Part shown: one piece after another, positions 912 through 48,707 of the stretch
Layout of the letters: each line of letters begins with the position of its first letter
Position numbering within the stretch: the stretch's first letter is position 1
DNA from: Adenophora triphylla var. japonica
Lineage: Eukaryota; Streptophyta; Magnoliopsida; Asterales; Campanulaceae
Assembly (NCBI GenBank): GCA_022495995.1
Contig: JAFEMH010000532.1
Location: 124,001 to 188,000 of the forward strand
Length of the DNA stretch: 64,000 nucleotides
Direction of reading: 5' to 3'
Program-made: the position numbers and the translations under genes
Notes under the pieces: generated by a model
Seen by the model: the letters and a program-made list of their open reading frames with translations, nothing else
The model's database searches: none
Told to the model about the DNA's origin: nothing

Positions 912-2327
912 TGTAAGTACCCCAATCTGGATCACCCCCTTTCAAGCACACGGGAAGCACCGCAGACTCATCAACGCAGTCTCGACGACCTCTGGCACTC
1001 AAAACCCTCTCAAAACCCCCCAAACCCAAACCAAGGGAGGAGCCTTCCTGGGATAAAAAGGGACAAAAGGACCTTTTGGGAATTTTCAGGAAATTGAAAA
1101 AGCAAAAATGGTCCGTACGGACCTCTTTGTTTTCATAATTACTGAATCCCCTTAAAGTCCACAATATTCCCTCAAATCCCGGAGAAAATGATTACCCTCA
1201 TGCTTAGTTGGTCCGTACGGACCTCTTTGCATGTCAACATGGTCCGTACGGACCTTATTGCTCAGGGGACATCATAATTTCAGAATATTCACCATCATCA
1301 CATATTCCCTCAAATCGAGGAAAACCAAAATTCTGGATAACCAAGAAGGTCCGTACGGACCTTCTTGCACCTAAACTGGCACTATAAATAGAGGGCTCCC
1401 CCTCCTCATTTTCACACACCTCCCACTTCTCTCTTCCTCCCTAGGCCTTCTGGCTTCCCCTCTAAGTCCTTCCGAGGCATTCCCGGCCCCTTTCGGATCC
1501 TTCCGAGGCCTTCCGAGCCCCCTCGTGGTGCTCCGAAGCCTCCCCGAGCGCTCCCGAGACGCTCCCGCGCTGCCCCGATGCACTCTCGAGGTACTCTGAG
1601 GCCCCTCGTGGTACTCCGAGGCCTTGCCTGGTCTTTCCACGGTGTCCCGGCTCTTTCCGAGTCAAACCGGCGATCCCAAACCACGCCGAAATCCCCGCCC
1701 GAGTGACTTCGCCACCACAACGCACGCCGAACCTCTCGCCCGAGTGATCCCGACGATCCCCACGCACGCCGAACCTCCGCCCGAACGCATCCCGCAACCT
1801 CAACTCACGCCGAAACTCCTGTCCGCAGTACAACCGGCATCTCCCGAAGCAATCCCGATCCGCACCGAACGCTACTCCGACCTCAAACACTATTCCCAAT
1901 GAAGACAGACACGAACCAACATTGGTAAGGCTTCCTTCCATTACTATTTCAATACATTTCCATACATAGCATACAATGTAGACAGCCGATACAGCATGCA
2001 TGTTTAAAAAGCACACACACACACACACAACATTTAAAGGATATTAGGGGTATCCGAAAGACTCGTTTACGAGGCTACTCTAGTGAGCTCTAATATTCTA
2101 ATATTCTCTTCCCGAGGAGTCATCTGACCTCCGAACTCAAAATCTCATCACACAAAAACAGTTTAAAATTATCTTTAAACTGATGCCCTTTTTCAATGTT
2201 TTGGGCTTAATAAAAACGGCGTGGCGACTCTACAAATGCGAAAAACAAACGGCGAGACAAACCGCTCCAACGCGAAAGACTGCCAGATGCCGGGGCCGCG
2301 AGGCCTGCTCGGATCCGGGCTATTTCT
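912..2327 (+). repeat. Family-A Tat LTR (extra upstream copy)
   Basis: It starts TGTAAGTACCCC and ends near GGATCCGGGCTATTTC, like the other four family-A LTRs. It holds GGTCCGTACGGACC palindromes at 1110-1123, 1210-1223, 1241-1254 and 1348-1361, a TATA box at 1383-1390, a CA microsatellite near 2010-2030, an AATAAA signal near 2208 and a TGGCGACTCT box at 2222-2231. The terminal A of the expected CA is altered. Open frames in the C-rich block 1400-1900 recur at the same place in every LTR and are frame-shifted against each other, so I do not treat them as genes. Confidence 0.9.
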
Positions 2328-2648
2328 GGGCTTGGCGACTACTGGGACTTTTTGTTTTAAAATCTTTTTAAACAAAACAAAAGATTTTTAAAAACAATGA
2401 TGAGGGTCAAACTTTCATTTTACCCCTTTCTTTAACTGTTATGTGTGTGTGCACGTGCTTCGTTTTTATTTTACAAAAAAAATAAAAATAAAAATGCATT
2501 AATATACATCTGTGCATACATTTAAAATTCTTCAAAAACTTCTGTTTTACTCAGAAAAAGAATTTTAGAGACCGCACACTACTCGCACTGCTGCCTCGGT
2601 TACACCGCACACTACTCACACTGCTGCCTCGGTTACACCGCACGCTAC
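2328..2648 (+). mobile_element. Family-A leader fragment with primer site
   Basis: A primer-binding-site-like TTGGCGACTACTGGGACTTT begins at 2332, followed by the same leader found after the other 5' LTRs (TG microsatellite at about 2440-2455, A-rich stretch, then repeats of a unit with CCGCACACTACTC and CTCGGTTACA). The leader is cut short at 2648, where GCTAC is followed directly by another LTR. Everything between leader and 3' LTR is missing, so 912-4045 reads as LTR-leader-LTR. Confidence 0.8.
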
Positions 2649-4045
2649 TGTAAGTACCCCAATCTGGATCACTCCCTTTCAAACACACGGGAAACACCGC
2701 AGACTCATCCACGCAGTCTCAGAGACCTCTCTCACTCAAAACCCTCTCAAAACCCTCTCAAACCCCCAACCAAACCAAGGGAGGAGCCTTTCTGGGATAA
2801 AAAGGGACAAAGGACCTTTCGGGAATTTTTCAGAAACCGAAAAGCAATATAGGTCCGTACGGACCTCTTTGTTTCCATAATTACCGAATCCCCTTAAAGT
2901 CCACAATATTCCTCAAATCCCGGGAGAAATGATGGTTTCCATGCGTACTTGGTCCGTACGGACCTCTTTGCATGCAAGATGGTCCGTACGGACCTCTTTG
3001 CAAGGGGACATCATCATTTCCTAATATTCACCATCATTGCATATTCCTCAAATCGAGGAAAACCAAAATCCTGGATAACCAAGGAGGTCCGTACGGACCT
3101 CTTTGCACCAAATCTGAGACTATAAATAGAGGGCTCCCCTCCTCATTTTTTCACACCTCCCACTTCTCTCTTCCTCCCTAAGCCTTCTCTCGGCTCCCCT
3201 CTAAGACCTTTCGAGGCATTCCCGCCCCTTCGGATCCTTCCGAGGCCTTCCGAGCCCCTCGAGGTGCTCCGAAGCCTCTCCGAGCGCTCCCGAGACGCTC
3301 CCGCTGCCCCGAGGCACTCTCGAGGTACTCGAGGCCCCTCGTGGTACTCCGAGGCCTCGCTCGGGTCTTTCCACCTGTCCCGGCTCTTTCCGAGTCAAAC
3401 CGACGATCCCAAACCACGCCGAAACTCCGCCCGAGTGACTCCGCCACCACAACGCACGCCGAACCTCTCGCCCGAGTGATCCCGACGATCCCCACGCACG
3501 CCGAACCTCTCGCCCGAACGCAGCCTACAACCTCAACTCACGCCGAAACGCTGTCCGCGGACAACCGCATCCCCAAGCAATCCGAACGCTACTCCGACCT
3601 CAAACACTATTCCCCCGCGGAAGACAAAAGACACGAACCAACATTGGTAAGGCTTCCTTCCTATTCTATTTCAATACATTTCAATACAATGTAGACATCC
3701 GATACAAAGATGCATTTTTAAAAGCACACACACACACACACACAACTTTTTAAAGGATATTAGGGGTATCCGAAAGACTCGTTTTACGAGGCTACTCGGG
3801 TGAGCTCTAATATTCTAATATTCTCTTCCCGAGGAGTCATCTGACCTCCGAACTCAAAATCTCATCACACAAAAACAGTTTAAAATTTATCTTTAAACTG
3901 ATGCCCTTTTTCAATGTTTTGGGCTTAATAAAAACGGCGTGGCGACTCTACAAAAAATGCGCAAGCAAAACGGCGAGACACCTCCAACGCGAAAGAATGC
4001 CAGATGCCGGGGCCGCGAGGCCTTTCTCGGATCCGGGTAATTTCA
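2649..4045 (+). repeat. 5' LTR of element A1
   Basis: TGTAAGTACCCC to GGGTAATTTCA, 1397 bp, immediately followed by GT and the primer site. Palindromes GGTCCGTACGGACC at 2852-2865, 2951-2964, 2981-2994 and 3086-3099; TATA box TATAAATA at 3121-3128; CA microsatellite near 3725-3745; TGGCGACTCT box at 3940-3949. It is shared with the truncated LTR-leader unit immediately upstream. Confidence 0.93.
3121..3128 (+). promoter_or_regulatory. LTR TATA box
   Basis: TATAAATA followed by GAGGGCTCCCC sits about 20-270 bp downstream of the four palindromes. Identical boxes occur at 1383, 17252, 31526 and 47774 in the sister LTRs, and at 51162 in the family-B LTR, marking the start of the retroelement transcript. 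Confidence 0.85.
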
Positions 4046-4047
4046 GT

Positions 4048-9055: not shown

Positions 9056-9057
9056 CA

Positions 9058-12691: not shown

Positions 12692-12735
12692 GGTCCGTAC
12701 GGACCTCTTTTGCATGTAGGTCTGTCCGTACGGAC
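12692..12735 (-). promoter_or_regulatory. LTR-type palindrome pair upstream of aORF1
   Basis: GGTCCGTACGGACC at 12692-12705 and GTCCGTACGGAC at 12724-12735 lie about 120-160 bp upstream of the aORF1 ATG. Both are followed on the plus strand by CTCTT..GCA or CTCTTGCA as in the LTRs. The sequence between ATG and palindromes is A/T-rich and could hold a minus-strand core promoter (TTAAAT near 12665). Confidence 0.7.
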
Positions 12736-13044
12736 CTCTTGCAATCGTAACCCATTTCCTCAAAGAACAAGATAACAAACACTCCCTCAAGAAACCTTGC
12801 TCCAAACAGCCCAAACACGGCCAAAGCCATTTCCGCAAACCAACACTACCCACAAACGCACTCTCACCACGTGGCATGTACAAAAAATAAAAATAATAAT
12901 AGCAACAATTTCTAGGACAATTCCCTGAATCACAAAAATAAATGACATTACATCTTAAAAATAAAATACCGTTTGCCATGCAAATACATGTGTTTTATTA
13001 CAGTACAAAATGTCCGTTGCTAAACAAAAAAAAAAAGAGAGAGG
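12736..13044. other. Spacer between antisense genes
   Basis: About 300 bases of A/T-rich sequence (ATTTCTAGGACAATTCC, CATGCAAATACATG and a poly-A run at 13027-13039). No supported gene. It should hold the 3' end of the aORF2 transcript; the A2 copy is nearly identical at 41290-41600. Confidence 0.5.
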
Positions 13045-14135: not shown

Positions 14136-14250
14136 CAACGACAACTCAACCACCGAAAGTCCAAGTCATCTTCCCAATGTAAAAGTGGCCTCCCTGCAGG
14201 TCAGCGCATCCTCAGCATCAAGCACCTGCAAGCCGCAGAAGCTCCGAACC
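14136..14250 (+). other. Deletion junction region of A1
   Basis: AACGACAACTCAACCACC at about 14128 onward matches A2 45535, directly after sequence matching A2 42715. About 2.8 kb present in A2, including aORF2 exons 1-2, its first intron, promoter palindromes and one tandem array, is missing here. Confidence 0.7.
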
Positions 14251-15300
14251 TAGCCCACTTCAACGGCAACGCAAGCACGGCAGCCGACGTAAGCCCGAAC
14301 TTCAGCCCACTCTCAACGGTAACTGCAGAATTAGCACCTAGCCAACAGAAGCTCAACCTAGCCCACTTTCAACGGCAACGCAAGCACGCAACAGCCAAAT
14401 GTAAGCTCGAACCCAGCCCACTTCAACGGCAACGCAAGCACCTAAGCAGCCGCCAGAAGCCCGAACTCTAGCTCTACTTCAACGGCAACGCAAGCACCTG
14501 CCGCCGTGAAGCCCGAACCTAGCCCACTTCAACGGCAACGCAAGCACCTAAGCAGCCACAGAAGCCCGAACCTAGCCCACTTCAACGGCAACGCAAGCAC
14601 CGGCAGCCAAATAGCCGTAAGCTCCGAACCTAGCCTACTTCAACGGCAACGCAAGCACTATGGGCCAAAGTGGAAGCTCCGAACCTAGCCACTTCAACGG
14701 CAACGCAAGCACTCTAGCCAGCGAAGCTCCGAACCCAGCCCACTTCAACGGGCAACGCAAGCACCTGGCAAGCTCCGTAAGCTCCAACCTAGCCCTACTT
14801 CAACGGCAACGCAAGCACGGCAAAGCCAGCTGTAAGCCCGAACCTAGCCCACTTCAACGGCAACGCAAGCACCGGCAACAGCCATGTAAGCTCCGAACCT
14901 AGCCCACTTCAACGGCAACGCAAGCACCTAGCCGTTGTAAGCCCGAACCTAGCCTACTTCAACGGCAACGCAAGCACCGGCAACAGCGTAAGCCCGAACC
15001 TAGCCCACTTCAACGGCAACGCAAGCACCTGGCACAAGGTAAGCTCCGAACCTAGCCTACTTCAACGGCAACGCAAGCACCTGGCCAACTGTAAGCCCGA
15101 ACCTAGCCCACTTCAACGGCAACGCAAGCACCTGCACAACAGAAGCTCCGAACCTAGCCTTACTTCAACGGCAACGCAGGCACCGGCAGCCAAGCCGTAA
15201 GCTCCGAACCTAGCCTACTTCAACGGTAACGCAAGCACCTAGCCAATGTAAGCCCGAACCTAGCCTACTTCAACGCAACGCAAGCACCGGCCATCAAAGT
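14250..15300 (+). repeat. Tandem array, about 52 bp unit
   Basis: About 19 copies of a unit built on CACTTCAACGGCAACGCAAG followed by CACCGGCAGCC-like and GTAAGCTCCGAACCTAG blocks, spacing 49-60 bp. The related array in A2 (44940-45440) has the same CTTCAACGGCAA core but other flanking blocks. Open frames inside the array are by-products of the repeats. Confidence 0.9.
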
Positions 15301-15689
15301 AAGCCCGAGCTCCTCCTCAAGAAGTCAGTGGAAGTCATGCAAGACCGCATACCCTCAAGACGACCATCATTCTCGCCACTCCACGGCAAAACAAACACGC
15401 GAAGGAGCCAACACCTCCGAGTACAAGTCCCAAGGCACGAAGCGCTCCCAAAACGCCAAATGATGAAGCAATCATCGGCCATCATCTCGCCACTTCAACG
15501 GCAAAGACAAGCACCCCAGTCATCGTAAGTCCGACCTTCTACATCAACATGCAAAACACAAATGGCACTCAACCGCCGCGATGACGATTCAAGTCTCACA
15601 CCTATTCTCCGCCCCTAAGGCCTTAAACCACCCGATTAGGAAAATCGTATCCTTGACGCCACCACGCCTCACACCGTGACGCCATCACC
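15301..15689 (+). other. Spacer between A1 3' arrays
   Basis: Single-copy relative to the arrays, with degenerate leftovers of the 52-bp unit (CCACTTCAACGGCAAAGACA near 15489) and a block CACCCGATTAGGAAAATCGT shared with A2 at 46327. No gene seen. Confidence 0.55.
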
Positions 15690-16535
15690 TTATCACCGCT
15701 ATGCACCCAGACGCCACCACGATCACCGACCCTATACACCCTGACGCCACCACGTCCTTATCACCGACCTATACGGCCACCAGACGCCACCACGCTCTTA
15801 TCACCGACCTATACGGCCACCCAGACGCCACCACGCCCTTATCACCGACCTATACGGCCACCCAGACGCCACCACGCTCCTTATCACCGACCTATACGGC
15901 CACCCAGACGCCACCACGTCCTTATCACCGACCTATACGGGCCACCCAGACGCCACCACGTCCTTATCACCGACTCCATACTGGCCACCCGTGACGCCAC
16001 CACGCCCTTATCACCGACCTATACGGTCACCCAGACGCCACCACGTCCTTATCACCGACCTATACGGCCACCCGTGACGCCACCACGTCCTTATCACCGA
16101 CCTATACGGCCACCCAGACGCCACCACGCTCCTTATCACCGACCTATACGGCCACCCAGACGCCACCACGTCCCTATCACCGACCTATACGGTCACCCAG
16201 ACGCCACCACGTCCTTATCACCGACTCTATACGGCCACCCAGACGCCACCACGTCCTTATCACCGACCTATACGGCCACCCAGACGCCACCACGTCCTTA
16301 TCACCGACCTATACGATGGTCACCCAGGGGCGCCACCACGCCCTACCACCGACCTATACGGCCACCCAGACGCCACCACGTCCTTATCACCGACCTATAC
16401 GGCCACCAGACGCCACCACGTCCTTATCACCAACCTATACGGCCACCCAGACGCCACCACGTCCCTATCACCGACCTATAGGCCACCCAGACACCACCAC
16501 GTCTCACCACCGACCTCGGCGGTCACACAACACCT
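15690..16535 (+). repeat. Tandem array, 41 bp unit
   Basis: About 20 copies of a 41-bp unit whose blocks are ACGCCACCACGTCCTTATCA, CCGACCTATACGGCCACCCA and a final G. The homologous array in A2 (46360-47035) has ACGCCGCCACGTCC and CTATGCGGTCACCCGGG. Because 41 is not a multiple of three, frames read through it in all phases; the long ORFs here are not genes. Confidence 0.92.
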
Positions 16536-16786: not shown

Positions 16787-18251
16787 TCGTAAGTACCCCA
16801 ACTGGATCACTCCCTTTCAAACACACGGGAAACACCGCAGACTCATCCACGCAGCCTCGTAGACCTCTCTCACTCAAAACCCTCTCAAAACCCTCTCAAA
16901 CCCCCAACCAAACCAAGGGAGGAGCCTTTCTGGGATAAAAGGGACAAAGGACCTTTGGGAATTTTCAGAAATCGAAAAGCAATTAAGGTCCGTACGGACC
17001 TCTTTGTTTCAATGATTACTAAATCCCCTTAAAGTCCACAATATTCCTCAAATCCGGAGAAATGATGACTTCCATGCAGAGTTGGTCCGTACGGACCTCT
17101 TGCATGCAAGATGGTCCGTACGGACCTTATTGCTCAGTGGAACATCATCATTCCCAAATATTCTCCATCATTGCATTCCTCAAATCGAGGAAATCCAAAA
17201 TTCTCGATAACCAAGAAGGTCCGTACGGACCTCTTGCTCCGAAATTTTTACTATAAATAGAGGGCTCCCCCTCCTCATTTTTCACACCTCCCACTTCTCT
17301 CTTCCTCCCTAAGCCTTCCGGCTCCCCTTCTAAGACCTTTTCGAGGCATTCCCGCCCTTCGATCCTTCCGAGGCCTTCCGAGCCCCCTCGAGGTGCTCCG
17401 GCCTCTCCGAGCGCTCCCGAGATGCTCCCGCGCTGCCCCGAGGCACTCTCGAGGTACTCGAGGCCCCTCGTGGTACTCCGAGGCCTCGCTCGGTCTTTCC
17501 CACGGTGTCCCGGCTCTTTCCGAGTCAAACCGGCGATCCCAAACCTTGCCGAACCTCTCGCCCGAATCCAACCAACGATTCCAACGCACGCCGAACCTCT
17601 CGCCCGAGTGATCCCGACGATCCCCACGCACGCCGAACCTCTCGCCCGAACGCAGCCTTACAACCTCAACTCACGCCGAAACTCTGTCCGCGGACAACCG
17701 GCATCCCCGAAGCAATCCGAACGCTACTCCGACCTCAAACACTATTCCCCGCGAAGACAGACACGAACCAACATTGGTAAGGCTTCCTTCCTATTCTATT
17801 TCAATACATTTCAATACAATGTAGACATCCGATACAAAGATGCATTTTTAAAAGCACACACACACACACAACATTTAAAGGATATTAGGGGTATCCGAAA
17901 GACTCGTTTTTACGAGGCTACTCTGTGAGCTCTAATATTCTAATATTCTCTTCCCGAGGAGTCATCTGACCTCCGAACTCAAAATCTCATCACACAAAAA
18001 ACAGTTTAAAATTTATCTTTAAACTGATGCCCTTTTTCAATGTTTTGGGCTTAATAAAAACGGCGTGGCGACTCTACAAAATGCGAAAGCAAAACGGCGA
18101 GACACCTCCAACCCGCAAACGCTAAAACGGAATAAGCCAGATGCCGGGGCGCGATTGTGCTGCCTCTCGGATCCGGGCGACTTCCCGAACAGCGACGAAT
18201 TGCGAGATGCACGGGGCCCCCCGCGCGCGAGCCGGATCCCGGGTAATTTCA
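16787..18251 (+). repeat. 3' LTR of element A1
   Basis: Starts TCGTAAGTACCCC, an altered TG end, and finishes CCCGGGTAATTTCA. Palindromes at 16987-17000, 17084-17097, 17113-17126 and 17218-17231; TATA box at 17252-17259; TGGCGACTCT at 18066-18075. It carries an extra GC-rich block near its end (18120-18240) also seen in the A2 5' LTR but not in the A1 5' LTR, so the two LTRs of A1 are not simple copies of each other. Confidence 0.9.
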
Positions 18252-18345
18252 CTCATGCACCATTGAAGAGTGATGAATGAAAAGGGTGACCAATGTGGTC
18301 GGATGGCTGGACCTTTATGAAAGGCTACCTACGTATCCCGGAGGA
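18252..18345 (-). mobile_element. Inverted scrap of a Tat 3' untranslated end
   Basis: Read on the minus strand it contains CGGCTTGATTCCTCCGGGAT and ACGTAGG followed by GGTCCAGCCATCCGACC, matching the block that precedes the 3' LTRs (compare 50480-50560). It fits the continuation of the inverted family-B element whose LTR lies at 1-911, with some sequence lost at the A1 insertion. Confidence 0.55.
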
Positions 18346-18596
18346 ATCAAGCCGCATCCCTAGACCATGCTGCCTCGTCACCCTCTCCCTAAATAGTAGA
18401 CATCGTAGGTGAGTCCCCGCAAGATACACCTCTGCCCCATCCAGCGATCAGCACCACCCAGCTGATAGACCTCAAACCGATCCCAAGGGTAAAAATTAAC
18501 CCTATCACTGGTCTCCGCCATCAAAAATGGTACCATGTCATTGTACCTCATCTTCCTCCTAGTCCTGCCATTCAGATCGAAATATGAGAAGACCAT
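18346..18596 (-). pseudogene. Fragment of antisense PMD gene (aORF2)
   Basis: This piece repeats 29793-29990 of element C in the same orientation, from CATCCCTAGACCATGCTGCC onward. The minus-strand frame gives M-V-P-F-L-M-A-E-T-S-D-R-V-N-F-Y-P-W-D-R-F-E-V, the third-exon segment of aORF2. Where the C copy has a stop codon after R-W-T-S, this fragment reads on through R-W-M-G-Q-R-C-I-L-R-G-L, so it comes from a less damaged copy. It joins directly to the left end of the C gag region, marking a rearrangement breakpoint. Confidence 0.75.
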
Positions 18597-23470: not shown

Positions 23471-23492
23471 GCACTACATACAGTCTCACTCA

Positions 23493-28254: not shown

Positions 28255-28329
28255 GGCTTTCTATGGTTTTGGGTCGTGACTTCAGAAAGAACAGAGAAGA
28301 AGATGAAGTTGAGTGGTGAAAACCAGGGC

Positions 28330-30913: not shown

Positions 30914-31051
30914 CTGAAAGTAGACACAACACAAATATGTCATCAAAATTGCCAATATGATACGAACAACAAAAGAACATGAAAGAAAGAAAATAAACTC
31001 CGTCCCATTTTCGGACACATTTCCCTACACGCATCTTTTCTCACATAACAT
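30914..31051 (-). other. Part of aORF2 intron 1 of C
   Basis: Reading the minus strand, this A/T-rich stretch ends in the acceptor CTACTTTCAG before exon 2. The intron is interrupted by the A2 5' LTR at 31052. By analogy the A2 gene has an 822-bp intron here. Confidence 0.55.
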
Positions 31052-32527
31052 TGTAAGTACCCCAATCTGGATCACTCCCTTTCAAACACACGGGAAACAC
31101 CGTAGACTCATCCACGCAGTCTCAGAGACCTCTCTCACTCAAAACCCTCTCAAAACCCTCTCAAACCCCCAAACAAACCAAGGGAGGAGCCTTTCTGGGA
31201 TAAAAAGGGACAAAAGGACCTTTTGGGAATTTTCAGGAAATCAGAAAAGCAATTAAGGTCCGTACGGACCTCTTTGTTTCAATGATTACTAAATCCCCTT
31301 AAAGTCCACAATATTCCCTCAAATCCCGGAAGAAATGATGACTTCCTGCGAGTTGGTCCGTACGGACCTCTTTGCATGCAAGATGGTCCGTACGGACCTT
31401 ATTGCATGGGGGACATCATCATTCCGAATATTCTCCATCATTGCGAGATTCCTCAAATCGAGGAAATCCAAAATTACGGATAACCAAGAAGGTCCGTACG
31501 GACCTCTTTGCTCCGAAATTTTTACTATAAATAGAGGTCTCCCCCTCCTCATTTTCACACACCTCCCACTTCTCTCTTCCTCCCTAAGCCTTCGGCTCCC
31601 CTTCTAAGACCTTTCGAGGTATTCCGGCCCCTTCGGATCCTTCCGAGGCCTTAGAAGCCCCTCGAGGTGCTCAGAAGCCTCCCAGCGCTCCGAGACGCTC
31701 CGCGCTGCCCGAGGCACTCTCGAGGTACTCTGAGGCCCCTCGTGGTACTCCGAGGCCTTGCTGGTCTTTCCACGGTGTCCGGCTCTTTCCGAGTCAAGCC
31801 GACGATCCCAAACCACGCCGAAACTCTGCCCGAGTGACTCCTGCCACCACGACGCACGCCGAAACCTCGCCCGAGTGATCCCGACGATCCCCACGCACGC
31901 CGAACCTGCCCGAACGCAGCCTACAACCTCAACTCACGCCGAAACTGCGTCCGCGGACAACCGGCATCTCCCGAAGCAATCCCGATCCGTGCAGGAACGC
32001 TACTCCGACCTCAAACACCATTCCCCGGCGGAAGACGGACACGAACCAACATTGGTAAGGCTTCCTTCCTCTACTATTTCAATACATTTTCATACATAGC
32101 ATACAATGTAGACATCCGATACGGCATGCATTTTTAAAAGCACACACACACACACACAACATTTAAAGGATATTAGGGGTATCCGAAAGACTCGTTTACG
32201 AGGCTACTCGGAGTGAGCTCTAATATTCTAATATTCTCTTCCGGGGAGTCATCGACCTCCGAACTCAAAATCTCATCACACAAAAACAGTTTAAAATTTA
32301 TCTTTAAGCGATGCCCTTTTCAATGTTTTGGGCTTAATAAAAACGGCGTGGCGACTCTACAAAATGCGAAAGCAAAACGGCGAGACACCTCCAACACGCA
32401 ACGCTAAACGGAATAAGCCGGATGCGGGCGCGATTGTCTTGCCTCTCGGATCCGGGCGACTTCCCGAACAGCGACGAACGCGAGACTGCCGGGGCCTCCG
32501 CGCGCGAGCCGGATCCGGGTAATTTCA
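31052..32527 (+). repeat. 5' LTR of element A2
   Basis: TGTAAGTACCCC to GGGTAATTTCA, 1476 bp. Palindromes at 31257-31270, 31355-31368, 31385-31398 and 31491-31504; TATA box 31526-31533; AATAAA at 32336-32341; TGGCGACTCT at 32349-32358. It includes the GC-rich block at about 32400-32500 that is missing from the A2 3' LTR, so its two LTRs differ in structure. Confidence 0.93.
32349..32358 (+). promoter_or_regulatory. PBS-like box inside U5
   Basis: TGGCGACTCT repeats the first ten bases of the primer site that follows 180 bases later. Same box at 2222, 3940, 18066 and 48607 in sister LTRs, and TGGCGACTCC at 52611 in the family-B LTR. Confidence 0.7.
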
Positions 32528-32529
32528 GT

Positions 32530-37529: not shown

Positions 37530-38780
37530 TTCCGGCCTGAAACCAGATCTTCCAATACCTCAAGAGCGGGAAACCACCTTCATGAACAAGGAAGGTCAAC
37601 ACACGAAGGGGTCAAAACCAAGAGCATCATGGCCACTAAACGCCTTGCCTCTCACTTCGTCATCCTCGGGGACATGTTATACAAGAAACGCTACCATGGG
37701 CCACTCCTACGGCTGCGTCGGCCAAGAAGAAACGGACAAGTTCATGAGCAGAAGTCCACAATGGGGCTTGCGGTCCCCACATGAATGCCGAGCCACGATG
37801 CAAATCATTCTCGGGATGGGCTACTCTTTGGATCTCCATGGAGCGGTGCATCCACTTTGTCCGAAAGCTGCGACAAGTGCCAGCGGTTCTCCAACCTCAA
37901 TCATCTACCGCCCCACGATCTCTCTTGCATGACTACACCTTGGCCCTTTGCCACTTGGGAATTGACGTCATCGGGAAAATCGCTCCGCCGAGCGACAACG
38001 GTCACGAGTTCATCTTAGTAGCCATCGACTACTTCACCAAATGGGTCGAAGCCAAGTCCTACAAGGTACTCACCTCCAAGAAGGTCGCGCATTTCCTCAA
38101 GGAAAACATCATATGCCGATACGGCATCCCAAATGAGGTCATATCAGACAACGGCTCACACTTCGAAGGGGAATTCGACGGGCTAGCGGCTGAATTCAAG
38201 GTCACACGCCACAAATCTTCTCCCTACCGGCCGCAAACAAACGGCGCCGTGGAAGCGGCAAACAAAACCCTCGAACGGATCATCCGAAAAATGACCACCC
38301 GAAGACGAGATTGGCCAGAGAAGCTGCACCTTGCACTTTGGGGCTACCGCACATCGATCGAACGACCACGGGAGAAACCCCATTTGCCACGACGTACGGG
38401 ATGGAAGCGGTCCTTCCCGTCGAGCTAGAAATTCCCTCACTCCAGTCTTGCGGAAAATGACATCAACGAAGTCGAATGGCTCGAAGCCGACATGACGAAT
38501 TGGCTCTGCTAGATGAGCGACGACTAAAGGCCATGGAACACGTCAGGAGCCTATCAAAGCGGGATGGCTAGAGCTTTCGACAAGAAAGTCAAATCCCGAG
38601 ACATCGGGGAAGGTGACCTTGTACTCAAAGAAAAGCCTCCCACTCGAACCAACCCCTTTGGGAAAATGGGAACCCACATGGATCGGCCCTTTCGTGGTTG
38701 AAAGATCTTCTCCGGAGCGCCATGAAGCTAACGGACCTAGACGGCAATCCGCTTCATGAATCCGGTCAACGGAAGCAAAC
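37530..38780 (+). pseudogene. int: Integrase of A2 with intact catalytic core
   Basis: The N-terminal region (37545-37930) is in shifted frames but shows R-L-A-S-H-F-V-I-L-G-D and the zinc-binding area. From 37781 to 38428 one 215-residue frame carries the core: I-D-V-I-G-K (first Asp, about 37965), A-I-D-Y-F-T-K-W-V-E-A-K, V-I-S-D-N-G-S-H-F-E-G (second Asp) and N-G-A-V-E-A-A-N-K-T-L-E-R-I (catalytic Glu). All three catalytic residues are present, in contrast to element C. The C-terminal part (38430-38770) is again in shifted frames. This is the best-preserved pol domain of either A copy. Confidence 0.88.
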
Positions 38781-39563: not shown

Positions 39564-41121
39564 TTAACTAATAATGTGTTTGCAATGCAATGAATGGATA
39601 CCTAGGAGGTCATTCCGCGCCATCTGCGCTTGTCCCCTCGCCATTCTTTCCTTTCTTCCCTCGTCCCCGGCGAGTCTTCTTTCGCTCCACGTGAACCAAC
39701 TCTGCGTCTCTCGGTCAGAGATGCGGGGTCCTCCCAGTAGAGTCAAATAATCCGGTAGCTCTCGGGGCTTCATTCGCCGTGCTTCGGCTCGGATCTCCTC
39801 CTGCGAGTGCAGCAAAGAGGACCTCTCCACTGTCGGTCGGTCAACTCTAGTCTCGTAGTCAAACAAAGCGTCTCCCGTCACATCGAAAGGGTCGGACCGG
39901 AGCTTCGGAACTCCTAAGGCAAGAGCTACTACGGCAACCGGGTCCCGAGAATCGCTACGCACGCTCTCCCAAGACCACTTGGGACCCTTGACATTTGCTC
40001 ATACCGGGCCGGATGCGAGTCGTCAATACAACGCTCCCAGACGTCTAAGGAGTACCACGGGAGGGAAAGCGGAATACTTCCATACCCTCGGAAAATACAA
40101 GAAGGCACACAGAAGTAGGCGCCATACAAAGAGGAACTACCTCCGCGGTAGCAAGGTCATCCCGGCCCAACAAAGGCTCTGCTTCATCCCAAGCTGCCGG
40201 GAAACAAGCGACGGAATATAGAAGGAGGACCAAGACAAACACGGAACTCGACAACGTAGGACCCTTCTGCAAGATCCTCCTGGTCTCAATCCTCCGGTGC
40301 GGAACCCACCGGCGGATCGATGCGTACCAAGGCGTGCCATCCATCTCTCCCGGGCGGGTGATCCATATCCAACACAAGAGGTCGGCGAGCAAATGACCAC
40401 GGGCTAAACGACGTCGGAGCCTCGGGCATGGCTGAAGTCTCTCTCGCGGCCACAAGGTGAGCAAGCGGGGCTTCCCCCTCTCATAAAACGATCCCCGGTC
40501 GCCGGACGGTCGATACCATGAAGAGTCTCCCCCGGCACCAACGGGACAATATCCTCTCCGGCTCTGCGGTGCCCTACCACATCTAGCAAGCGCCATCACA
40601 AATGCCGAGGCGGCCCGGAAAAGCGTCGCCATCACGCACAAGGCAAATACATCCCAAGAGACGTCACTCTCATCATCGGCCATGAACCGCTCAGGCGGCT
40701 CGAAATGTCGATATGACCCGAATCAAGGATCATGCCCTGCACTTCTTCCAACGAAGTACGAAGAAAGTCTGCAAGCTTCACGCTCACCGCGGCACCACCA
40801 ACCAAAGGAAGCGAGATGGCCTCCACCGCCGATCCTCCAATCAAAGCCCGAAAATCCTCAAAAGTGGGCACCATTTCATTGTAGGAGAAACATTACACGT
40901 GCCTCCTAACATCCCGGAACTTCAGCGGCGGCCCGCAACAAATCCCAATCGGGAACCAACTCCTTAAAAGACCAAGCCAGAGCAAAGACGAAACCTTACC
41001 TCGAAAGCCCGTCTACGATGCCTCATACGGCGCCGCATCCACGTTTTCAAGCGCTCAAGGAAGTGTGCTTGCCTCTCTGCGAAAGCCTCGGCAAAATTCT
41101 AGGGACATACGAAGAATCCAT
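39564..41121 (-). pseudogene. Antisense gene aORF1 of A2 (DUF7745-like)
   Basis: ATG at 41121 opens M-D-S-S-Y-V-P-R-I-L-P-R. The diagnostic segment M-V-P-T-F-E-D-F-R-A-L-I-G-G is at about 40830-40874, then D-V-F-A-L-C-V-M-A-T-L-F (around 40640) and a long 212-residue frame 40045-40683 that changes phase partway. The C-terminal end near 39564 reads M-A-R-G-Q-A-Q-M-A-R-N-D. Frames are shifted in at least four places. No intron is needed to align it to the C copy. It faces the integrase tail to tail and has the LTR palindrome pair about 120-165 bp upstream. Confidence 0.72.
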
Positions 41122-41241: not shown

Positions 41242-41285
41242 GGTCCGTACGGACCTCTTTGCATGCTAAGTATGTCCGTACGGAC
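41242..41285 (-). promoter_or_regulatory. LTR-type palindrome pair upstream of aORF1 (A2)
   Basis: GGTCCGTACGGACC at 41242-41255, followed by TCTTTGCATG, and GTCCGTACGGAC at 41274-41285, followed by CTCCTTGCA. The first has the same flanks as the second palindrome of the LTRs. Same arrangement at 12692-12735 in A1. Confidence 0.75.
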
Positions 41286-41636
41286 CTCCTTGCAAAACGG
41301 AACCCATTTCCCCGGAAAACGGTACAAAAACCACTTGTCCTCGGCAAAACCTTGCTCCAAAGCGCCCAAACAACGGCCAAAGCCATTCCCGGCAAACAAA
41401 CACTACCCACAAACACACTCTCGGCTCACGTGGCATGTACAAAAATAAAAAATAATAATAGCAACAATTTCTAGGACAAATTCCGGGAATCACAAAAATG
41501 ACATTACATCTTAAAATAAAATCTTGTTTGCCATGCAAATACATGTGTTTTATTACGGGTACCAAAAATGTCTGTTGCTAAACAAAAAAAAAAAAAAAAG
41601 AGAGGGATATGAAAAGAGGAAAGCAAATGAATACTA
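41286..41636. other. Spacer between antisense genes of A2
   Basis: A/T-rich with ATTTCTAGGACAAATTCC, CATGCAAATACATG and an A-run at 41583-41599; no gene. Nearly the same as 12736-13044. Confidence 0.5.
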
Positions 41637-44636
41637 ATCGAGAATCCTCGGCATCATCATCCTCGCCAAGATCCTCCAAAGAAAAGTCGGGCATCGGCGA
41701 ACTCGCCGTCACATCCTCGTCGTCGGAATACCGAGGCACCCGCTGAGGCTCCCACGAGAAGTACTCGGAAGGATCAAATCCGGCGAAAGGATCGAAGAAA
41801 GAAGGCTGAGGAACCCTCACCACTGTGCGCCGTGCGGAGAGCATGAGCGATAAAAGGGCTGCTCCCTCGAAGGCCTGCGGCTCCGAAGACGTCCGGCATC
41901 CATGCTATGCCGCCCCCTCAAAGGCCCCTCTGCTGCGGCTCAGGCTCGGCTCTAGGCGGAGGAACGTCCACGAGAATGCCTCGAAGGCATAGGCTCGTGC
42001 GGCGGCACACGACGCGCGAGACCGACGGGACACCTTCGACGCCATCTTCTTAGCGAAGGAGCGCATCGCCACGTAACGGCGAGTCGGCATATCGTAGGCT
42101 CTCCCGGGACTGCACCAACAAGAAGCCAAGGAAACGCTCATCAAATGCGGTTATACTCAACAACAAAAAGAGAAAAATGCGAAAAGATGCCAAGATGGAA
42201 AAGAGTCGGCACACTCACCGCGTCTGTCGGGATCCGCTCGGTATGCGGCGGGAGCTGCTCGGGAGCAGTGCTGAGACACCCTCCTCCTCGATCCGTCCCC
42301 GCGGACGTACGTGAAATCCGGTCCGGCATCGGAACCTGCAGGGGAGCTGCGGGCCGGCCTCTCTCTCCGCGCCGGCACAGCGGCGTCCTCAGCTTCCTCC
42401 TCACGAAGGCCCCGTACTCCTCTCCGTATAAAATGAACTCCTCGGCGCCGACACCGCCAAGGTACCTCTCGAAGTCAAGCACGTCCATATCCCGGGAGTC
42501 AAGCATCCCAAAGGGAGGGTCCCTCGGAGCCACGGGAAGCACACGGGGCCATCTTTGCCCGGAAGACTCGCTCCCAGTACATGGCGTCACAAGTCAAGCC
42601 TCGCAGCATCTTCCGCCGCGCTGTCACCTCGGGAGCCCCCTCGAACTCATCCCCCTCATCACCGAGCCCACGGGAACAGAACGAACCCCTCACGGCTATC
42701 CCGCTCCAAACGCTCCTGCACATCCCCGTAGGCGATGGTGAGCTTCCCATTTGGTCCTCCTCTTCCTCGCCGTACGAGCCCGTCCCGGCATAGCGGGTGC
42801 CGGCAACGGCCCGGGATCCCTATCCCACGGGAAGCTTGGAAAACCTCATAAAACCACACACTGTGACAAAAACGAGAGAAGGCTCGGTGCAAAAGACAAC
42901 GGAGAAAAGACAAGTTGCTAAATCAAAAAAAAAACGACAATAAACTCATACCTCCAAAGCAAAGTCAAAGCGGGCCAACGACGGCCACCCCAGGCTAAAC
43001 CGGTCCAAGGAGAAGTAGAGCTCGGCCAAGCACTGCCTCGCCCCAAGCAATGTCGCGAGACCCTATCCGAGATCAGTCAAGCTCTCCAACGAGCAAAGGG
43101 AGGCTGCGGTCGCGTGGTTCGAGAACAAAGTCTCGGACGGTGCATACCACAAGAAGGAGCGCGCCAAGCGCTCCGTGTCACTGGCCGGTACCCGGATGTA
43201 GGCCCCAATCTTGGCCGTGATCCTCATCTCCACGTCGGCATGCAGCATCCCGGGCCTGCGAGGACGAGGCTCAAAGCCCGGCGGCTCGGTCAACACGTCA
43301 TCGGCTATCATATCCCTCCACCTCACAGGCTCTCCTTTGAAGGAAAGCCGGTGATCGCGGCAAAGTCGGTGGGCGTCACGTCACCTCGCCCCGGCTCGGG
43401 TGGAAGGTGTGGGTGGTATCCCACCAATACTCGGAAAAGGCCCGGGGAAGACACTCTTGTTCTTCCTCGTGTCGACAGCTCCGGCCCGGGTTCTCAGCGA
43501 ACACACCTAGGCCGAAGCATAAACCGACCTCAGGGGACTCGGCCTACCGCCCACGGAAATATCGGGCATCATTGCCATAGCTCCACAACGGCCTCGGCGA
43601 TCCCGAGTCTTCATCCTCTTGGCCTTCCCGGCCATAAGCCCCGCATCCTGCAGGTAAACACAGCAAAGGTACGTCAATCACAGTACTTAATATAAAGGCA
43701 CATATAACCCGTCACAAAACACGGCACATATTGCACATAATTTTCACATACATTATACATATAATTTTTCCATGTAACCCGTCACAAAACACGGCACACA
43801 ATGCACATAATTTTCACATATATCATGCATATAATTTTTCCCATGCGATCCGTCACAAAAACACGGCACACCTTTGTGCACATTTTCTCAAAAGAAAAAA
43901 AAGGGGGGGGGATTAAACCCTACACGACACATTTTCAAAAGAAAATCCGTCCCAACACGGCACACATTGCACATATTTTTCACATATAACCCGTCACAAA
44001 AACACGGCACATATCGCACATATTTTCCCCACAAAGTCCGTCACCCAAAAACACGGCACACACTATATAGCACATTCTCAAAAGAAAATCCGTCCCAACA
44101 CGGCACACACTTTCACATATAACCCGTCACAAAACACGGCACATGTCACATTTTTTTTTCACAAAAAATTATCACTACACGATAATTTTCTCATAATGTA
44201 CATACATAAATAGCATACGGTACAAAACACCAAAGCATGCAATTCACTAGATAGGCACTTTATTTTCACAAATAAGAGCTAATCTACACATTTCTGCACA
44301 AAATACACATACCCACAATTTTTACATGTCCATTTTCAACAATTCATCAAGAATTTCGCAAAAGGCATAAAATAATAACAAAAAAAAAAATTCAAAAATG
44401 CGAAAAACTAAAACCTAGTTCTAGCATTCAAAAATTCGACGAGGAATCAAAACGGAACAGATTTCTTACCTCCCCAACGTTCATGGAGCGACGATTATGC
44501 ACCTCCGGATTCGGATACAAAACATCCGGGTTCTTCGAAGATGGAACGAACGAAGTCCAATTCCTTTGAAGCTCCATCCGTTGCTCGACCACCTCTTGAC
44601 TGCGTTGACGACGACTCCTTCGAGATCCCTCCGCCA
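41637..44636 (-). pseudogene. Antisense PMD gene aORF2 of A2, four exons
   Basis: ATG at 44636 starts M-A-E-G-S-R-R-S-R-R-Q-R-S-Q. Predicted exon 1 is 44636-44470; intron 1 is 44469-43648 (GTAAGA..CTGCAG, 822 bp); exon 2 43647-42952 carries the plant mobile domain with the conserved W-G-E-A-[VG]-L-[GA] segment; intron 2 42951-42861 (GTATGA..TCACAG); exon 3 42860-42219 with Y-L-G-G-V-G-A-E-E-F-I-L; intron 3 42218-42110 (GTGAGT..GTGCAG); exon 4 42109 to about 41637. Introns 2 and 3 match those in element C. The coding exons are frame-shifted in many places. Function unknown; PMD proteins are found both in hosts and as extra genes of Tat elements. Confidence 0.72.
43715..44150. repeat. Short repeats in aORF2 intron 1
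   Basis: About seven irregular copies of a unit built on CCGTCACAAAACACGGCACA followed by TTGCACATA and TTTTCACATATAACC, spacing 45-75 bp, lie wholly inside the predicted first intron. CGTG and CACG arms recur, so the RNA could fold locally. Confidence 0.75.
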
Positions 44637-44798
44637 TTGCAAGCAATTCAAGCTAAGAAAAATGGAAGATTTGGGACAAAAATGGAGTTTTCTCTCTTTC
44701 TCTCTCGCTGGTTCACGCACGAGAAGAAGGAATGGGAAATGAAGGGAGCCTCGGAATTTAAAGCACAGTCAAACACAGGAGCTGTAAAAAACCAAGGT

Positions 44799-44842
44799 GG
44801 TCCGTACGGACCTCTTTGCAACCAGGTTGGTCCGTACGGACC
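44799..44842 (-). promoter_or_regulatory. LTR-type palindrome pair upstream of aORF2 (A2)
   Basis: GGTCCGTACGGACC at 44799-44812 and 44829-44842, each followed by TCTTTGCAA, lie about 165-205 bp upstream of the aORF2 ATG. Between them and the ATG is GAATTTAAAGC (44752), a possible minus-strand TATA-like box. The pair spacing of 30 bp equals that of the middle two palindromes of the LTRs (30-31 bp). Confidence 0.75.
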
Positions 44843-44939: not shown

Positions 44940-45440
44940 CCTAACCCTTCAATTCAACCACCGGCCGTCAAGCGTAAGACCGGACCTCGCCCACTTCAAC
45001 GGCAATTCAACCACCGGCCGTCAAGCGTAAGACCGGTCCTCGCCCACTTCAACGGCAAATCAATCCCCGGCCGTCAGCGTAAGACCGGTCCTCGCCCACT
45101 TCAACGGCAAATCAACCACCGGCCGTCAGCGTAAGACCGGTCCTCGCCCACTTCAACGGCAAATCAACCACCGGCCGTCAGCGTAAGACCGGTCCTCGCC
45201 CACTTCAACGGCAATTCAACCCGGCCGTCAAGCGTAAGACCGGTCCTCGCCCAGCGGCAACGGCAAATCAAGCCGGCCGTCAACGTAAGACCGGTCCTCG
45301 CCCACTTCAACGGCAAATCAACCACCGGCCGTCGGCGTAAGACCGGACCTCGCCCCTTCAACGGCAAATCAACCACCGGCCGTCGGCGTAAGACCGGACC
45401 TCGCCCGCTCAAGCGGCAATTCAACCACCGCCGGCTCAAG
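44940..45440 (+). repeat. Tandem array, about 53 bp unit
   Basis: About nine copies with blocks CGCCCACTTCAACGGCAA, TCAACCACCGGCCGTC and AGCGTAAGACCGGTCCT. It is a diverged relative of the 52-bp array of A1. The minus-strand frame 45164-45439 simply reads the repeats. Confidence 0.9.
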
Positions 45441-46080
45441 CGGCAATTCCGACCTCCCAGCTCAACGGCAATTCAGAAGGAGCCAACACCTCCCGGCCAC
45501 GAATATCAAGGCACAAGACGCCTCCAAGCGCTCAGCGACAACTCAACCATTTGGCCCTCGAAAGAGGTCCGAAGTCATCTTCCCAACAGAAAAGGGCCCC
45601 TACAAGGTCACGCATCCCCAGCAATTCAAGCACCGGCAGTCAGATGTAAGCCCGAACTTCGCCCACCTCAACGGCAACGCAAGCACCGGCCATCAAAGTA
45701 AGCCCGAGCTCCTCCAAGTCAAAGGGAAGTCATACAAGACTGCATATCCCCAGCATCGGCCATCATCCTTGCCCACTCAACGGCAAAACAAGCACGCGAA
45801 GGAGCCAACACCTCCGAGTACAAGTCCCAAGGCACGAAGCGCCTCCAAAATGCCAAATGGTGAAGCAATCACCGGCCGTCATCCTTGCCCACTTCAACGG
45901 CAGCGCAAGCACCGGCAGTCATCGTAAGTCCAACCTTCTACATCAACATGCAAAAACACAAATGGCATCTACGCCTCTCGAAGCACAAGGCAGCCACGCC
46001 TCCACACCTGCGGCTAGAGGACGATTCAAAGTCCTCGCGCATTACATCCACAACTGCGGCTAGAAGACGATTCAAAGTCC
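45441..46080 (+). other. Degenerate repeat region of A2
   Basis: Mixed remnants of the 52/53-bp unit, including GCCCACCTCAACGGCAACGC (45661) and CCCACTTCAACGGCAGCGCA (45888), with single-copy text shared with A1 15300-15560. No gene. Confidence 0.6.
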
Positions 46081-46290: not shown

Positions 46291-46359
46291 GTCCTCACAA
46301 CTATCTCCGGCCCGGAAGGCCTTAAACCACCCGATTAGGAAAATCGTAAAACTTCCATC

Positions 46360-47035
46360 CCAGGACGCCACCACGTCCTCACATTTGACCTATGCGGTCA
46401 CCCAGGACGCCACCACGTCCTTATCACTGACCTATGCGGTCACCCAGGACGCCACCACGTCCTTATCAGCTATGCGGTCGCGGGACGCCAGCGTCCTTAT
46501 CAGCGACTATGCGGTCACCCGGGACGCCGCCACGTCCTTACCGCGACCTATGCGGTCACCCAGGACGCCACTACGTCCTTATCACCGACCTATGCGGTCA
46601 CCCGGGACGCCGCCACGTCACTTACCTGGCTATGCGGTCGCGGGGCGCCGCACGTCCTTATCACCGACTATCACGGTCACCCGGGACGCCGCCCACGTCC
46701 TTATGACCTATGCGGTCACCCGGGACGCCGCACGTCCTTATCAGGCCTATGCGGTCACCCGGGACGCCGCCACGTCCTTATCATGCGGTCGCGGACCGCA
46801 CGTCCTTACCGACTTTATCGGTCAGGGGCGCCGCCACGTCCTTACCGCGACCTATGCGGTCACCCGGGACGCCGCCACGTCCTTATCACCGACCTATGCG
46901 GTCACCCGGGACGCCGCCACGTCACTTATCGCACGCCGCCACGTCCTTATCAGGCTATGCGGTCGCGGGACGCCGCACGTCCTTATCACCGACCTATGCG
47001 GTCACCCGGGACACCGCCGTCCTCACCGACCTCGG
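46360..47035 (+). repeat. Tandem array, about 41-42 bp unit
   Basis: About 16 copies with blocks GACGCCGCCACGTCCTTATC and ACCGACCTATGCGGTCACCC. Homologous to the 41-bp array of A1. Several units are shortened by 4-10 bp. The 313-residue frame over it is a repeat artefact. Confidence 0.9.
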
Positions 47036-47303
47036 CGGTCACACGACACTTCGGGCACCACCACGCCCGCGTATTCACGAACACTCACCCCACGCCGAAC
47101 TACGACCGGGCTTGATTCCCGCCGGGATACGTAGGAATCCTATCACGGGGTCCCGGCTATTGACCTAAACGGTCACCCAAAGGACACCACCACGTCCTCA
47201 CTTTGACCCTCACGGTCACTTCCTCTCCCCACGCGATCCAGTTAGGACCCTTATCTTATCGGCGACCCCACTTCTTTCATAAGTGACGTCGTCGAGGGCT
47301 TAC
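47036..47303 (+). other. 3' end of A2 with hairpin and PPT
   Basis: CTTGATTCCCGCCGGGATAC then GTAGGAATCC (47110-47140) forms the conserved GATTCC/GGAATC pair. CTTCTTTCATAAGTGACGTC and GTCGAGGGCTTAC end at the 3' LTR; the G-rich part is the polypurine tract. Confidence 0.72.
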
Positions 47304-48707
47304 TGTAAGTACCCCAATCTGGATCACTCCCTTTCAAACACACGGGAAACACCGTAGACTCATCCACGCAGTCTCGGAGACCTCTCTCACTCAAAACCCT
47401 CTCAAAACCCTCTCGAGCCCCAACAAACCAAGGGAGGAGCCTTTACAGGATAAAAGGGACAAAAAGGACCTTTTGGGAATTTTCGAAATCGGAAAAGCAA
47501 TTAAGGTCCGTACGGACCTCTTTGTTTCAATGATTACTAAATCCCCTTAAAGTCCACAATATTCCCTCAAATCCGGAAGAAATGATGACTTCCTGCGAGT
47601 TGGTCCGTACGGACCTCTTTGCATGCAAGATGGTCGTACGGACCTTATTGCATGGGGGACATCATCATTCGAGAATATTCTCCATCATTGCGAGATTCCC
47701 TCAAATCGAGGAAATCCAAAATTCTGGATAACCAAGGAGGTCCGTACGGACCTCTTTGCACGAAAATTTTTACTATAAATAGAGGGCTCCCCCTCCTCAT
47801 TTTCACACACCTCCCACTTCTCTCTTCCTCCCTAAGCCTTCTGGCTCCCCTTCTAAGACCTTTCGAGGCATTCCCGGCCCCTTCGGATCCTTCCGAGGCC
47901 TTAGAGCTCCCTCGAGGTGCTCAGAAGCCTCCCGAGCGCTCCCGAGACGGCTCCGCGCTGCCAGAGGCACTCTCGAGGTACTCTGAGGCCCCTCGTGGTA
48001 CTCAGGAGGCCTTGCACAGTCTTTCCACGGTGTCCGGCTCTTTCCAGAGTCAAGCCGGCGATCCCAAACCACGCCGAAACTCTGCCCGAGTGACTCACCG
48101 CCACCACAACGCACGCCGAACCTCGCCCGAGTGATCCCGACGATCCCCACGCACGCCGAACCTGCGCCCGAACGCAGCCTACAACCTCAACTCACGCCGA
48201 AACTCTGTCCGCGGACAACCGGCATCTCCGAAGCAATCCCGATCCATGGGAGCAGCTACTCCGACCTCAAACACCATTCCCCAGCGGAAGACAGACGCGA
48301 ACCAACATTGGTAAGGCTTCCTTCCTATACTATTTCAATACATTTCCATACATAGCATACAATGTAGACATCCGATACAGCATGCATTTTTAAAAGCACA
48401 CACACACACACACAACATTTAAAGGATATTAGGGGTATCCGAAAGACTCGTTTTACGAGGCTACTCGGGTGAGCTCTAATATTCTAATATTCTCTTCTAG
48501 GGAGTCATCGACCTCCGAACTCAAAATCTCATCACACAAAAACGAGTTTAAAATTTATCTTTAAGCGATGCCCTTTTTCAATGTTTTGGGCTTAATAAAA
48601 ACGGCGTGGCGACTCTACAAATGCGAAAACAAACGGCGAGACACCTCCGACGCGAAAGATGCCAGATGCCGGGGCCGCGAGGCCTTTCTCGGATCCGGGC
48701 TATTTCA
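47304..48707 (+). repeat. 3' LTR of element A2
   Basis: TGTAAGTACCCC to GGATCCGGGCTATTTCA, 1404 bp. Palindromes at 47505-47518, 47602-47615, one with a lost C at about 47632-47644, and 47739-47752. TATA box 47774-47781; TGGCGACTCT at 48607-48616. Confidence 0.93.

What the first reader, a model, noticed from the sequence alone, without database searches (positions are those of the whole stretch)
912..48707. One 14-bp palindrome shared by all family-A LTRs and by the promoters of both antisense genes
GGTCCGTACGGACC occurs four times in each of five family-A LTRs (one copy damaged), always upstream of the TATA box, and again as pairs 12692/12724 and 41242/41274 upstream of aORF1 and 44799/44829 upstream of aORF2. 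I saw it nowhere else in the window. Flanks are shared as well: the palindrome is followed by CTCTTTGCA at most sites, and the middle LTR pair and the aORF2 pair have 30-31-bp spacing. This suggests one trans-acting factor controls the sense LTR promoter and two antisense promoters. Candidates include an element-encoded protein (aORF1 or the PMD product) or a host dimeric factor; CG-rich palindromes would also be methylation-sensitive. The link to function is inference.
Basis: partly seen in the sequence, partly recalled or inferred. Interest (0 to 1): 0.88.

Follow-up and report, generated by a model that had tools for sequence, protein, structure and literature searches.

The report
Shared palindromic switch in plant retrotransposon promoters
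A very abundant plant jumping gene carries the same short palindromic DNA signal in front of its main promoter and in front of two genes that it reads backwards, which suggests that one protein switches on all three together.

Summary
Observation confirmed, and larger than stated. GGTCCGTACGGACC occurs 23 times exactly in the window and 47,555 times in the 2.48-Gb genome, against 0 for the reversed control. All 63 exact sites that one search listed (contig C1) lie in LTR U3 or in pairs upstream of aORF1 or aORF2. Sampled by aORF1 protein, 28 of 29 copies besides the query carry the pair near -161/-130 from the ATG. Of 8 stretches fetched blind, 5 held an aORF2 start, all with the pair; 2 held an LTR with four sites, half of them exact; 1 held neither. 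The unit is composite: palindrome, 3 bases, TTGCA (32,142 oriented matches), about 20 bp before the LTR TATA box (11,866 against 189) and before a TATA-like box of aORF1. Best reading: a cis-regulatory operator shared by one sense and two antisense promoters of a Tat/Ogre-like element. Its half-site fits the host SBP/SPL consensus CCGTAC(A/G). An element-encoded PMD-family factor is the main rival. No binding or transcript data were available.

The parts
912..2327 (+). family-A LTR (followed by ~320 bp of 5' internal sequence, then abutting element 1); palindromes 1110, 1210, 1241, 1348
   Evidence: self-BLAST
2649..4045 (+). element 1 5' LTR; palindromes 2852, 2951, 2981, 3086
16787..18251 (+). 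element 1 3' LTR (end read from the TTTCA edge); palindromes 16987, 17084, 17113, 17218
31052..32527 (+). element 2 5' LTR; palindromes 31257, 31355, 31385, 31491
47304..48707 (+). element 2 3' LTR; palindromes 47505, 47602, 47631 (damaged), 47739
31491..31534 (+). LTR core promoter arrangement: palindrome, N3, TTGC, then TATAAATAG at 31526
12692..12736 (-). palindrome pair (31 bp apart) upstream of aORF1 in element 1; ATG at 12573
41242..41286 (-). palindrome pair (31 bp apart) upstream of aORF1 in element 2; CATAAATG about 20 bp downstream on the - strand; ATG at 41121
39564..41121 (-). aORF1, broken by frameshifts here; weak DUF7745/PMD-like protein
44799..44842 (-). palindrome pair (30 bp apart) upstream of aORF2; ATG at 44637
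44470..44637 (-). aORF2 exon 1 (predicted; donor GAG|GTAAG)
   Evidence: read; splice site inferred
42949..43648 (-). aORF2 exon 2 region, Plant Mobile Domain homologue, frameshifted in this copy (acceptor TGCAG inferred)
   Evidence: tblastn pieces within 43462-42949 of the window
37748..38428 (+). sense integrase core of element 2
   Evidence: rve E 1.1e-7, 32.5 bits against a cut-off of 32.6

Best explanation
GGTCCGTACGGACC-N3-TTGCA is a cis-regulatory operator of a very abundant Tat/Ogre-like Ty3/gypsy family. Four copies sit in U3 upstream of the LTR TATA box, and a pair 30-31 bp apart (about three helical turns) sits upstream of each of two antisense accessory genes, aORF1 and aORF2. One sequence-specific factor that reads the dyad therefore co-ordinates genomic RNA from the LTR and the mRNAs of the two antisense genes. 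Shown here: positions, enrichment, retention against flanking decay, fixed spacing to TTGCA and to TATA-type boxes, coding constraint on aORF1. Inferred: that it is bound, that it activates, and that the factor is the same at all three promoters. Most likely factor: a host SBP/SPL transcription factor, because each half of the palindrome carries CCGTACG, an exact fit to the published SBP site CCGTAC(A/G). My split: shared cis-regulatory operator about 0.9; same factor at all three about 0.8; host SBP factor about 0.45.
For: 47,555 exact sites, control 0. 63 of 63 sites listed on C1 lie in LTR U3 (54), aORF2 (5) or aORF1 (4) promoters (count checked, assignment by hand). Copies found by aORF1 protein: pair in 29 of 30, or 28 of 29 without L023, which is the query itself. 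8 stretches fetched without the motif: aORF2 pair in 5 of 5 where an aORF2 start was found; 4 of 4 sites at up to 2 mismatches in both LTRs found. U3 alignment of 20 LTRs: palindrome columns 0.984 against 0.859, CpGs kept 0.975 (8) against 0.618 (14), 0 of 20,000 random placements as good. 15 LTRs, one exact site removed from each of the 10 motif-selected C1 LTRs: 39 of 50 sites intact against a mean 0.28 for other 14-mers. aORF1 upstream, gaps ignored: sites 0.989 and 0.990 against a median 0.953. TATA coupling 11,866 against 189; aORF1-type box 1,787 against 51; TTGCA coupling 32,142 oriented matches against 0. Ten diverged LTRs keep further copies. SBP consensus from passages of PMC6508781.
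Against: No binding, transcript or expression data. TTG at a fixed 3-base distance is in 175 of 187 sites and is not part of the SBP consensus I found, so an SBP factor alone does not explain the composite. The 14-bp dyad is more than one CCGTAC site needs. In the two LTRs found without the motif only 4 of 8 sites are exact, against 0.32 and 0.38 for other 14-mers there; the best other 14-mers in U3 reach 0.87, as high as the palindromes (0.80-0.87), and the 95th percentile is 0.67. In one search one of the four sites ranks only 62nd of 576 windows. In the first aORF1 alignment, with gaps counted, the sites ranked 371st and 235th of 707; gap-aware they rank 22nd and 20th of 406. SBP genes in this genome were not confirmed (search did not complete). 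The aORF2 TATA-like box is about 36 bp from the palindrome, not 20.
Confidence: 0.6

Rival explanations
1. An element-encoded protein (aORF2, a Plant Mobile Domain protein, or the PMD-like aORF1) binds the palindrome and regulates its own gene, the other antisense gene and the LTR: a closed feedback circuit comparable to retroviral accessory regulators.
For: Both antisense genes carry the operator. aORF2 is PMD and PMD proteins MAIN/MAIL1 affect transcription and TE silencing in Arabidopsis (passages of PMC7156037). aORF1 is under coding constraint. The long composite dyad is more specific than a plain SBP site.
Against: No DNA-binding domain was recognised by Pfam in the pieces searched, which are broken frames. 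The motif given for the MAIN/MAIL1-dependent MORC1 promoter is CATGCAGTTT, not this palindrome, and chromatin contact of that complex is described as unknown (passages of PMC9899485). Strongly diverged LTRs keep the same core, easier with a host factor unless the proteins co-diverged, which was not tested.
Confidence: 0.28
2. No function: the palindrome is simply part of a recently amplified sequence, and the aORF promoters carry a copied piece of U3.
For: The aORF pairs match the middle LTR pair over about 50-60 bp at 83-89% and in the same orientation, so a copied module is possible. High copy number alone multiplies any 14-mer. Some other U3 14-mers are as well kept.
Against: Retention well above the average flank across subfamilies, CpGs included, also after correcting for selection by exact match; fixed TATA and TTGCA spacing genome-wide; different site numbers and positions in diverged LTRs such as L010, L053 and L061.
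Confidence: 0.08
3. The palindrome acts in RNA (hairpin or dimerisation signal) rather than in DNA.
For: A 14-base perfect palindrome can pair in RNA, and the 3' U3 and the pol-LTR region are in the genomic RNA (inference; no call).
Against: Fixed distance to TATA-type boxes on opposite strands and location upstream of the antisense starts fit promoter DNA; TTGCA is not part of a hairpin. No RNA folding was run.
Confidence: 0.04

Closest known systems
Ogre and Retand lineages of Tat (Ty3/gypsy) with antisense or extra ORFs
   Same: Long pol-3'LTR region with tandem repeats and extra genes; PMD reported in 57% of Ogre elements, Transposase_28 in 23% of Retand (passages of PMC6317226). Antisense ORFs suggested to be regulatory (PMC11963269, part 1 of 5 and passages read).
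   Different: Those texts, as far as read, describe no DNA motif shared between LTR and antisense promoters.
maize Grande gene23
   Same: [quoted passage not shown] the original paper was not seen).
   Different: One antisense gene; no shared operator with the LTR is mentioned in what I read.
LTR sites for host factors (ONSEN/HSFA2, EVADE/WRKY)
   Same: Element promoters recruit host transcription factors through sites in the LTR (passages of PMC12786077).
   Different: Here the same site set also stands before two internal antisense genes, and the factor is unknown.
SBP/SPL binding sites (GTAC core)
   Same: CCGTACG on both strands fits CCGTAC(A/G); GTAC core shared by SPL proteins (passages of PMC9516184).
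   Different: 14-bp perfect dyad with a fixed TTGCA partner; no such composite in the passages read.

Membership tests
Tat/Ogre lineage | Ty3/gypsy pol | tested here: inconclusive
   integrase core in element 2 at E 1.1e-7, 32.5 bits against a 32.6 cut-off; no RT tree made
Tat/Ogre lineage | PMD extra ORF | tested here: met
   aORF2 in L005 51% identical to a PMD ORF over 139 aa, E 3e-49
Tat/Ogre lineage | second (archaeal-type) RNase H between RH and INT | not tested
   not searched in family A; feature as given in PMC6317226
Tat/Ogre lineage | primer binding site for tRNA-Arg | not tested
   TTGGCGACTCTGCTGGGGAC follows the 5' LTR; not aligned to a tRNA. The feature is stated for Ogre in passages of PMC9289625
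Retand lineage | antisense Transposase_28 domain | tested here: inconclusive
   no Pfam hit to it, but frames are broken
SBP/SPL target site | CCGTAC(A/G) | tested here: met
   present on both strands of each intact palindrome (consensus)
SBP/SPL target site | bound and regulated by an SBP protein | not testable with these tools
   no binding data; SBP gene search not answered
MAIN/MAIL1 'DOWN' motif | CATGCAGTTT | tested here: not met
   compared by eye only: the palindrome is unrelated; GCATGC lies between the sites of some pairs only

The most novel reading that the evidence does not exclude
The retrotransposon runs its own regulon: a protein made by one of its antisense genes recognises the palindrome at the LTR and at both antisense promoters, so sense transcription and accessory genes are coupled in a self-encoded feedback switch.
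Probability: 0.25. Interest if true: 0.9.

Novelty: new variant of a known kind. Interest (0 to 1): 0.62.

Why it matters
The function of antisense genes in plant retrotransposons is a long-standing open question. A single operator shared by the LTR and both antisense promoters ties these genes to the element's own expression programme and gives a short defined DNA bait for finding the regulator. If the host factor is SBP/SPL, the elements would be coupled to developmental phase or copper signalling; if it is element-encoded, plants have a retrovirus-like regulatory circuit. Tens of thousands of such sites could also titrate or rewire the factor in this genome.

Tried and rejected
Public protein search with aORF1: 1332 candidates, none at E 0.001. 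Solved structures: no sequence hit for aORF1 or PMD at E up to 1. No structure was predicted, because the available alignments are shallow and nearly identical. The stretch between the two family-A elements (18100-31060) was checked for its own LTRs and repeated palindromes: a 796-bp tandem duplication, one 227-bp direct repeat at 85% (18349/29787) that does not look like an LTR by eye, and a single perfect palindrome of 12 bases or more. The MAIN/MAIL1 DOWN motif as the same signal: rejected. Literature for the motif or the idea (listings, plus the passages named): nothing seen that describes a motif shared by LTR and antisense promoters; the library holds open papers only. Not done because the genome search did not complete: promoters of the neighbouring element's PMD genes (the co-divergence test), an unselected LTR set by DNA, the SBP and DUF7745 families in this genome, genome-wide counts of pairs and of one-mismatch sites.
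Full report
OBSERVATION. The palindrome GGTCCGTACGGACC occurs 23 times exactly in the window, plus two one-mismatch sites and one damaged site in register; 29 matches at up to 3 mismatches compare with a shuffle mean of 1.91. The five family-A LTRs carry four sites each, one damaged, upstream of TATAAATA; a pair stands upstream of aORF1 in both elements and upstream of aORF2 in element 2. Minor corrections: the second aORF1 site starts at 12723 and 41273 and has T for the first G. Element 1 lacks the aORF2 stretch.

GENOME SCALE. The window lies in an unnamed 2.48-Gb genome. The exact palindrome occurs 47,555 times; the reversed control does not occur. About 9 would be expected for equal base frequencies (my arithmetic). 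One search listed only its first places: 63 different exact sites in the first 2.9 Mb of contig C1. I fetched and read all of them (count checked). By U3 alignment and by the antisense gene starts, assigned by hand, 54 lie in LTR U3 (two of these, in L010, by position between aligned pieces), 5 upstream of aORF2 and 4 upstream of aORF1; none is left over.

TESTS NOT CHOSEN BY THE MOTIF. The C1 loci were found by the motif itself, so I also sampled by protein. An aORF1 protein search (query from L013, itself a motif-chosen locus) returned 138 scored matches; the 30 best became loci. 29 of 30 carry two sites (at most 2 mismatches) at about -161 and -130 from the ATG; L033 has none; L023 is the query's own place, so without it 28 of 29. 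The two sites are 31 bp apart in all but one (L028, 35 bp). From eight of these elements I fetched a 1.4-kb stretch at a fixed offset, without looking for the motif. Five contained an aORF2 start (found by a word with up to 6 errors), all with a pair at about -160 to -167 and -191 to -198. Two contained an LTR, both with four sites at up to 2 mismatches, 4 of 8 exact. One contained neither. These copies are closely related, so presence alone is weaker than it looks; the comparison with flanks matters more.

RETENTION AGAINST FLANKS. In 20 LTR U3 sequences palindrome columns keep the commonest base in 0.984 of sequences against 0.859 elsewhere; CpGs inside are kept in 0.975 against 0.618 outside; 0 of 20,000 random placements of four windows do as well; the four sites rank 6, 62, 7 and 2 of 576 windows. 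With second LTRs of what I took to be the same element dropped (15 sequences), and one exact site removed from each of the 10 C1 LTRs selected by the motif, 39 of 50 sites are intact against a mean 0.28 for other 14-mers; the 95th percentile of those is 0.67 and the maximum 0.87, as high as the palindromes (0.80-0.87). The three window LTRs in that set were not corrected. The two unselected LTRs have 4 of 8 exact sites, against 0.32 and 0.38 for their other 14-mers, so this test still needs a larger unselected sample. Upstream of aORF1 (36 sequences, gaps ignored) the two sites score 0.989 and 0.990 against a median window of 0.953, ranks 22 and 20 of 406; an earlier alignment that counted gaps put them at ranks 371 and 235 of 707. 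Ten LTRs picked by eye from the list for unusual flanks (so selected by a half-site and a TATA box) each keep at least one further site, at up to 3 mismatches, besides the selected one. Their U3 aligns with the window LTR at roughly 70-80% in pieces, or hardly at all beyond the sites (L061). Site number and position differ among them, which looks like turnover under a maintained requirement.

COMPOSITE SITE AND PROMOTER GEOMETRY. Of 187 sites (at most 2 mismatches, in the window and loci L005-L062 less three), 175 have TTG at exactly positions +4 to +6 on the better side (orientation was chosen by that match; about 3% would be expected). The other side shows TTG starting at +4 or +5 in 84, so the dyad is partly extended. 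Genome-wide, palindrome-N3-TTGCA occurs 15,937 + 16,205 times, control 0; a palindrome with TTGCA on both sides counts twice. Neighbouring sites are 30 or 31 bp apart in 61 of 114 cases, otherwise mostly 97-100 or 105-107. ACGGACC with TATAAA 18-22 bp further occurs 5,899 + 5,967 times, control 92 + 97. The aORF1 counterpart with CATAAATG occurs 921 + 866 times, control 20 + 31. In the aORF promoters TTGCA points away from the gene, that is, in the same direction along the element as in the LTR; the module therefore works, if it works, in both orientations. The aORF2 TATA-like box is about 36 bp away. The LTR middle pair and the aORF pairs match over about 50-60 bp, which fits a copied module or shared constraint; I cannot separate these.

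THE GENES. In aORF1 the first 165 codons of 25 copies give mean dS 0.134 and dN 0.040, ratio 0.30 (34 loci examined, those with a stop in that stretch left out, which favours a low ratio). It is, or was recently, a coding gene under selection. It matches DUF7745 weakly, below the curated cut-off, and PMD only marginally (E 0.017). aORF2 has a short basic first exon, a predicted intron, and a second exon that is clearly a Plant Mobile Domain protein (51% identity over 139 aa in L005, E 3e-49). The PMD ORF at 30143-30892 (PF10536, E 4e-22) seems to belong to a neighbouring element, apparently split in an intron by element 2 (inference). PMD is a known extra ORF of Ogre elements (passages of PMC6317226), so family A is best placed near Ogre, but RT phylogeny, second RNase H and primer site were not tested.

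MECHANISM. The simplest reading is a promoter operator bound by one factor, co-ordinating genomic RNA and two antisense mRNAs. A site kept by successful element lineages more likely helps transcription than silences it (inference). The half-site CCGTACG fits the SBP/SPL site CCGTAC(A/G), cited in PMC6508781 to Franco-Zorrilla 2014 and Liang 2008, so a host SBP factor is my leading candidate; DAP-seq motifs of SPL proteins that resemble GTACGGAC are recalled, not from a call. TTGCA would then need a partner factor. The main rival is an element-encoded PMD-family factor; nothing here excludes it.

NOVELTY. LTR sites for host factors are known (ONSEN, EVADE; passages of PMC12786077), and an antisense gene with its own promoter is known (Grande gene23; passages of PMC7264820). 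What I did not find in seven literature searches is one operator shared by the LTR and two antisense promoters of the same element. I rate it a new variant of a known kind.

Noticed in passing
window 30143-30892 (-): Clear Plant Mobile Domain ORF, probably of a second Ty3/gypsy element with RT and RNase H at 22494-24242; element 2 of family A seems inserted in its intron, separating it from its promoter.
   Followed up: partly
window 24669-26256: A 796-bp direct duplication at 99% identity inside the integrase-like region of the neighbouring element.
   Followed up: no
window 14219-15308, 15670-16516, 44950-45475, 46355-46930: Tandem repeat arrays between antisense genes and 3' LTR in both family-A elements, diverged between the two.
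   Followed up: no
window 912-2648: An LTR plus about 320 bp of 5' internal sequence abuts the 5' LTR of element 1 directly.
   Followed up: no
window 4-911 and 50805-51734: Inverted copies at 82.5% identity outside the two elements.
   Followed up: no
window 57307-59139 (+): Ty1/copia-type pol ORF of 610 aa (integrase, SH3-like, start of RVT_2).
   Followed up: no
L053, L054: Two strongly diverged LTRs share a separate block, TACGGACTCCGATTGAGACGTG, that also contains TACGGAC.
   Followed up: no
L023-L052, upstream of aORF1: The last base of the distal aORF1 site is A instead of C in 26 of 29 copies with the pair, a conserved departure from the perfect palindrome.
   Followed up: partly
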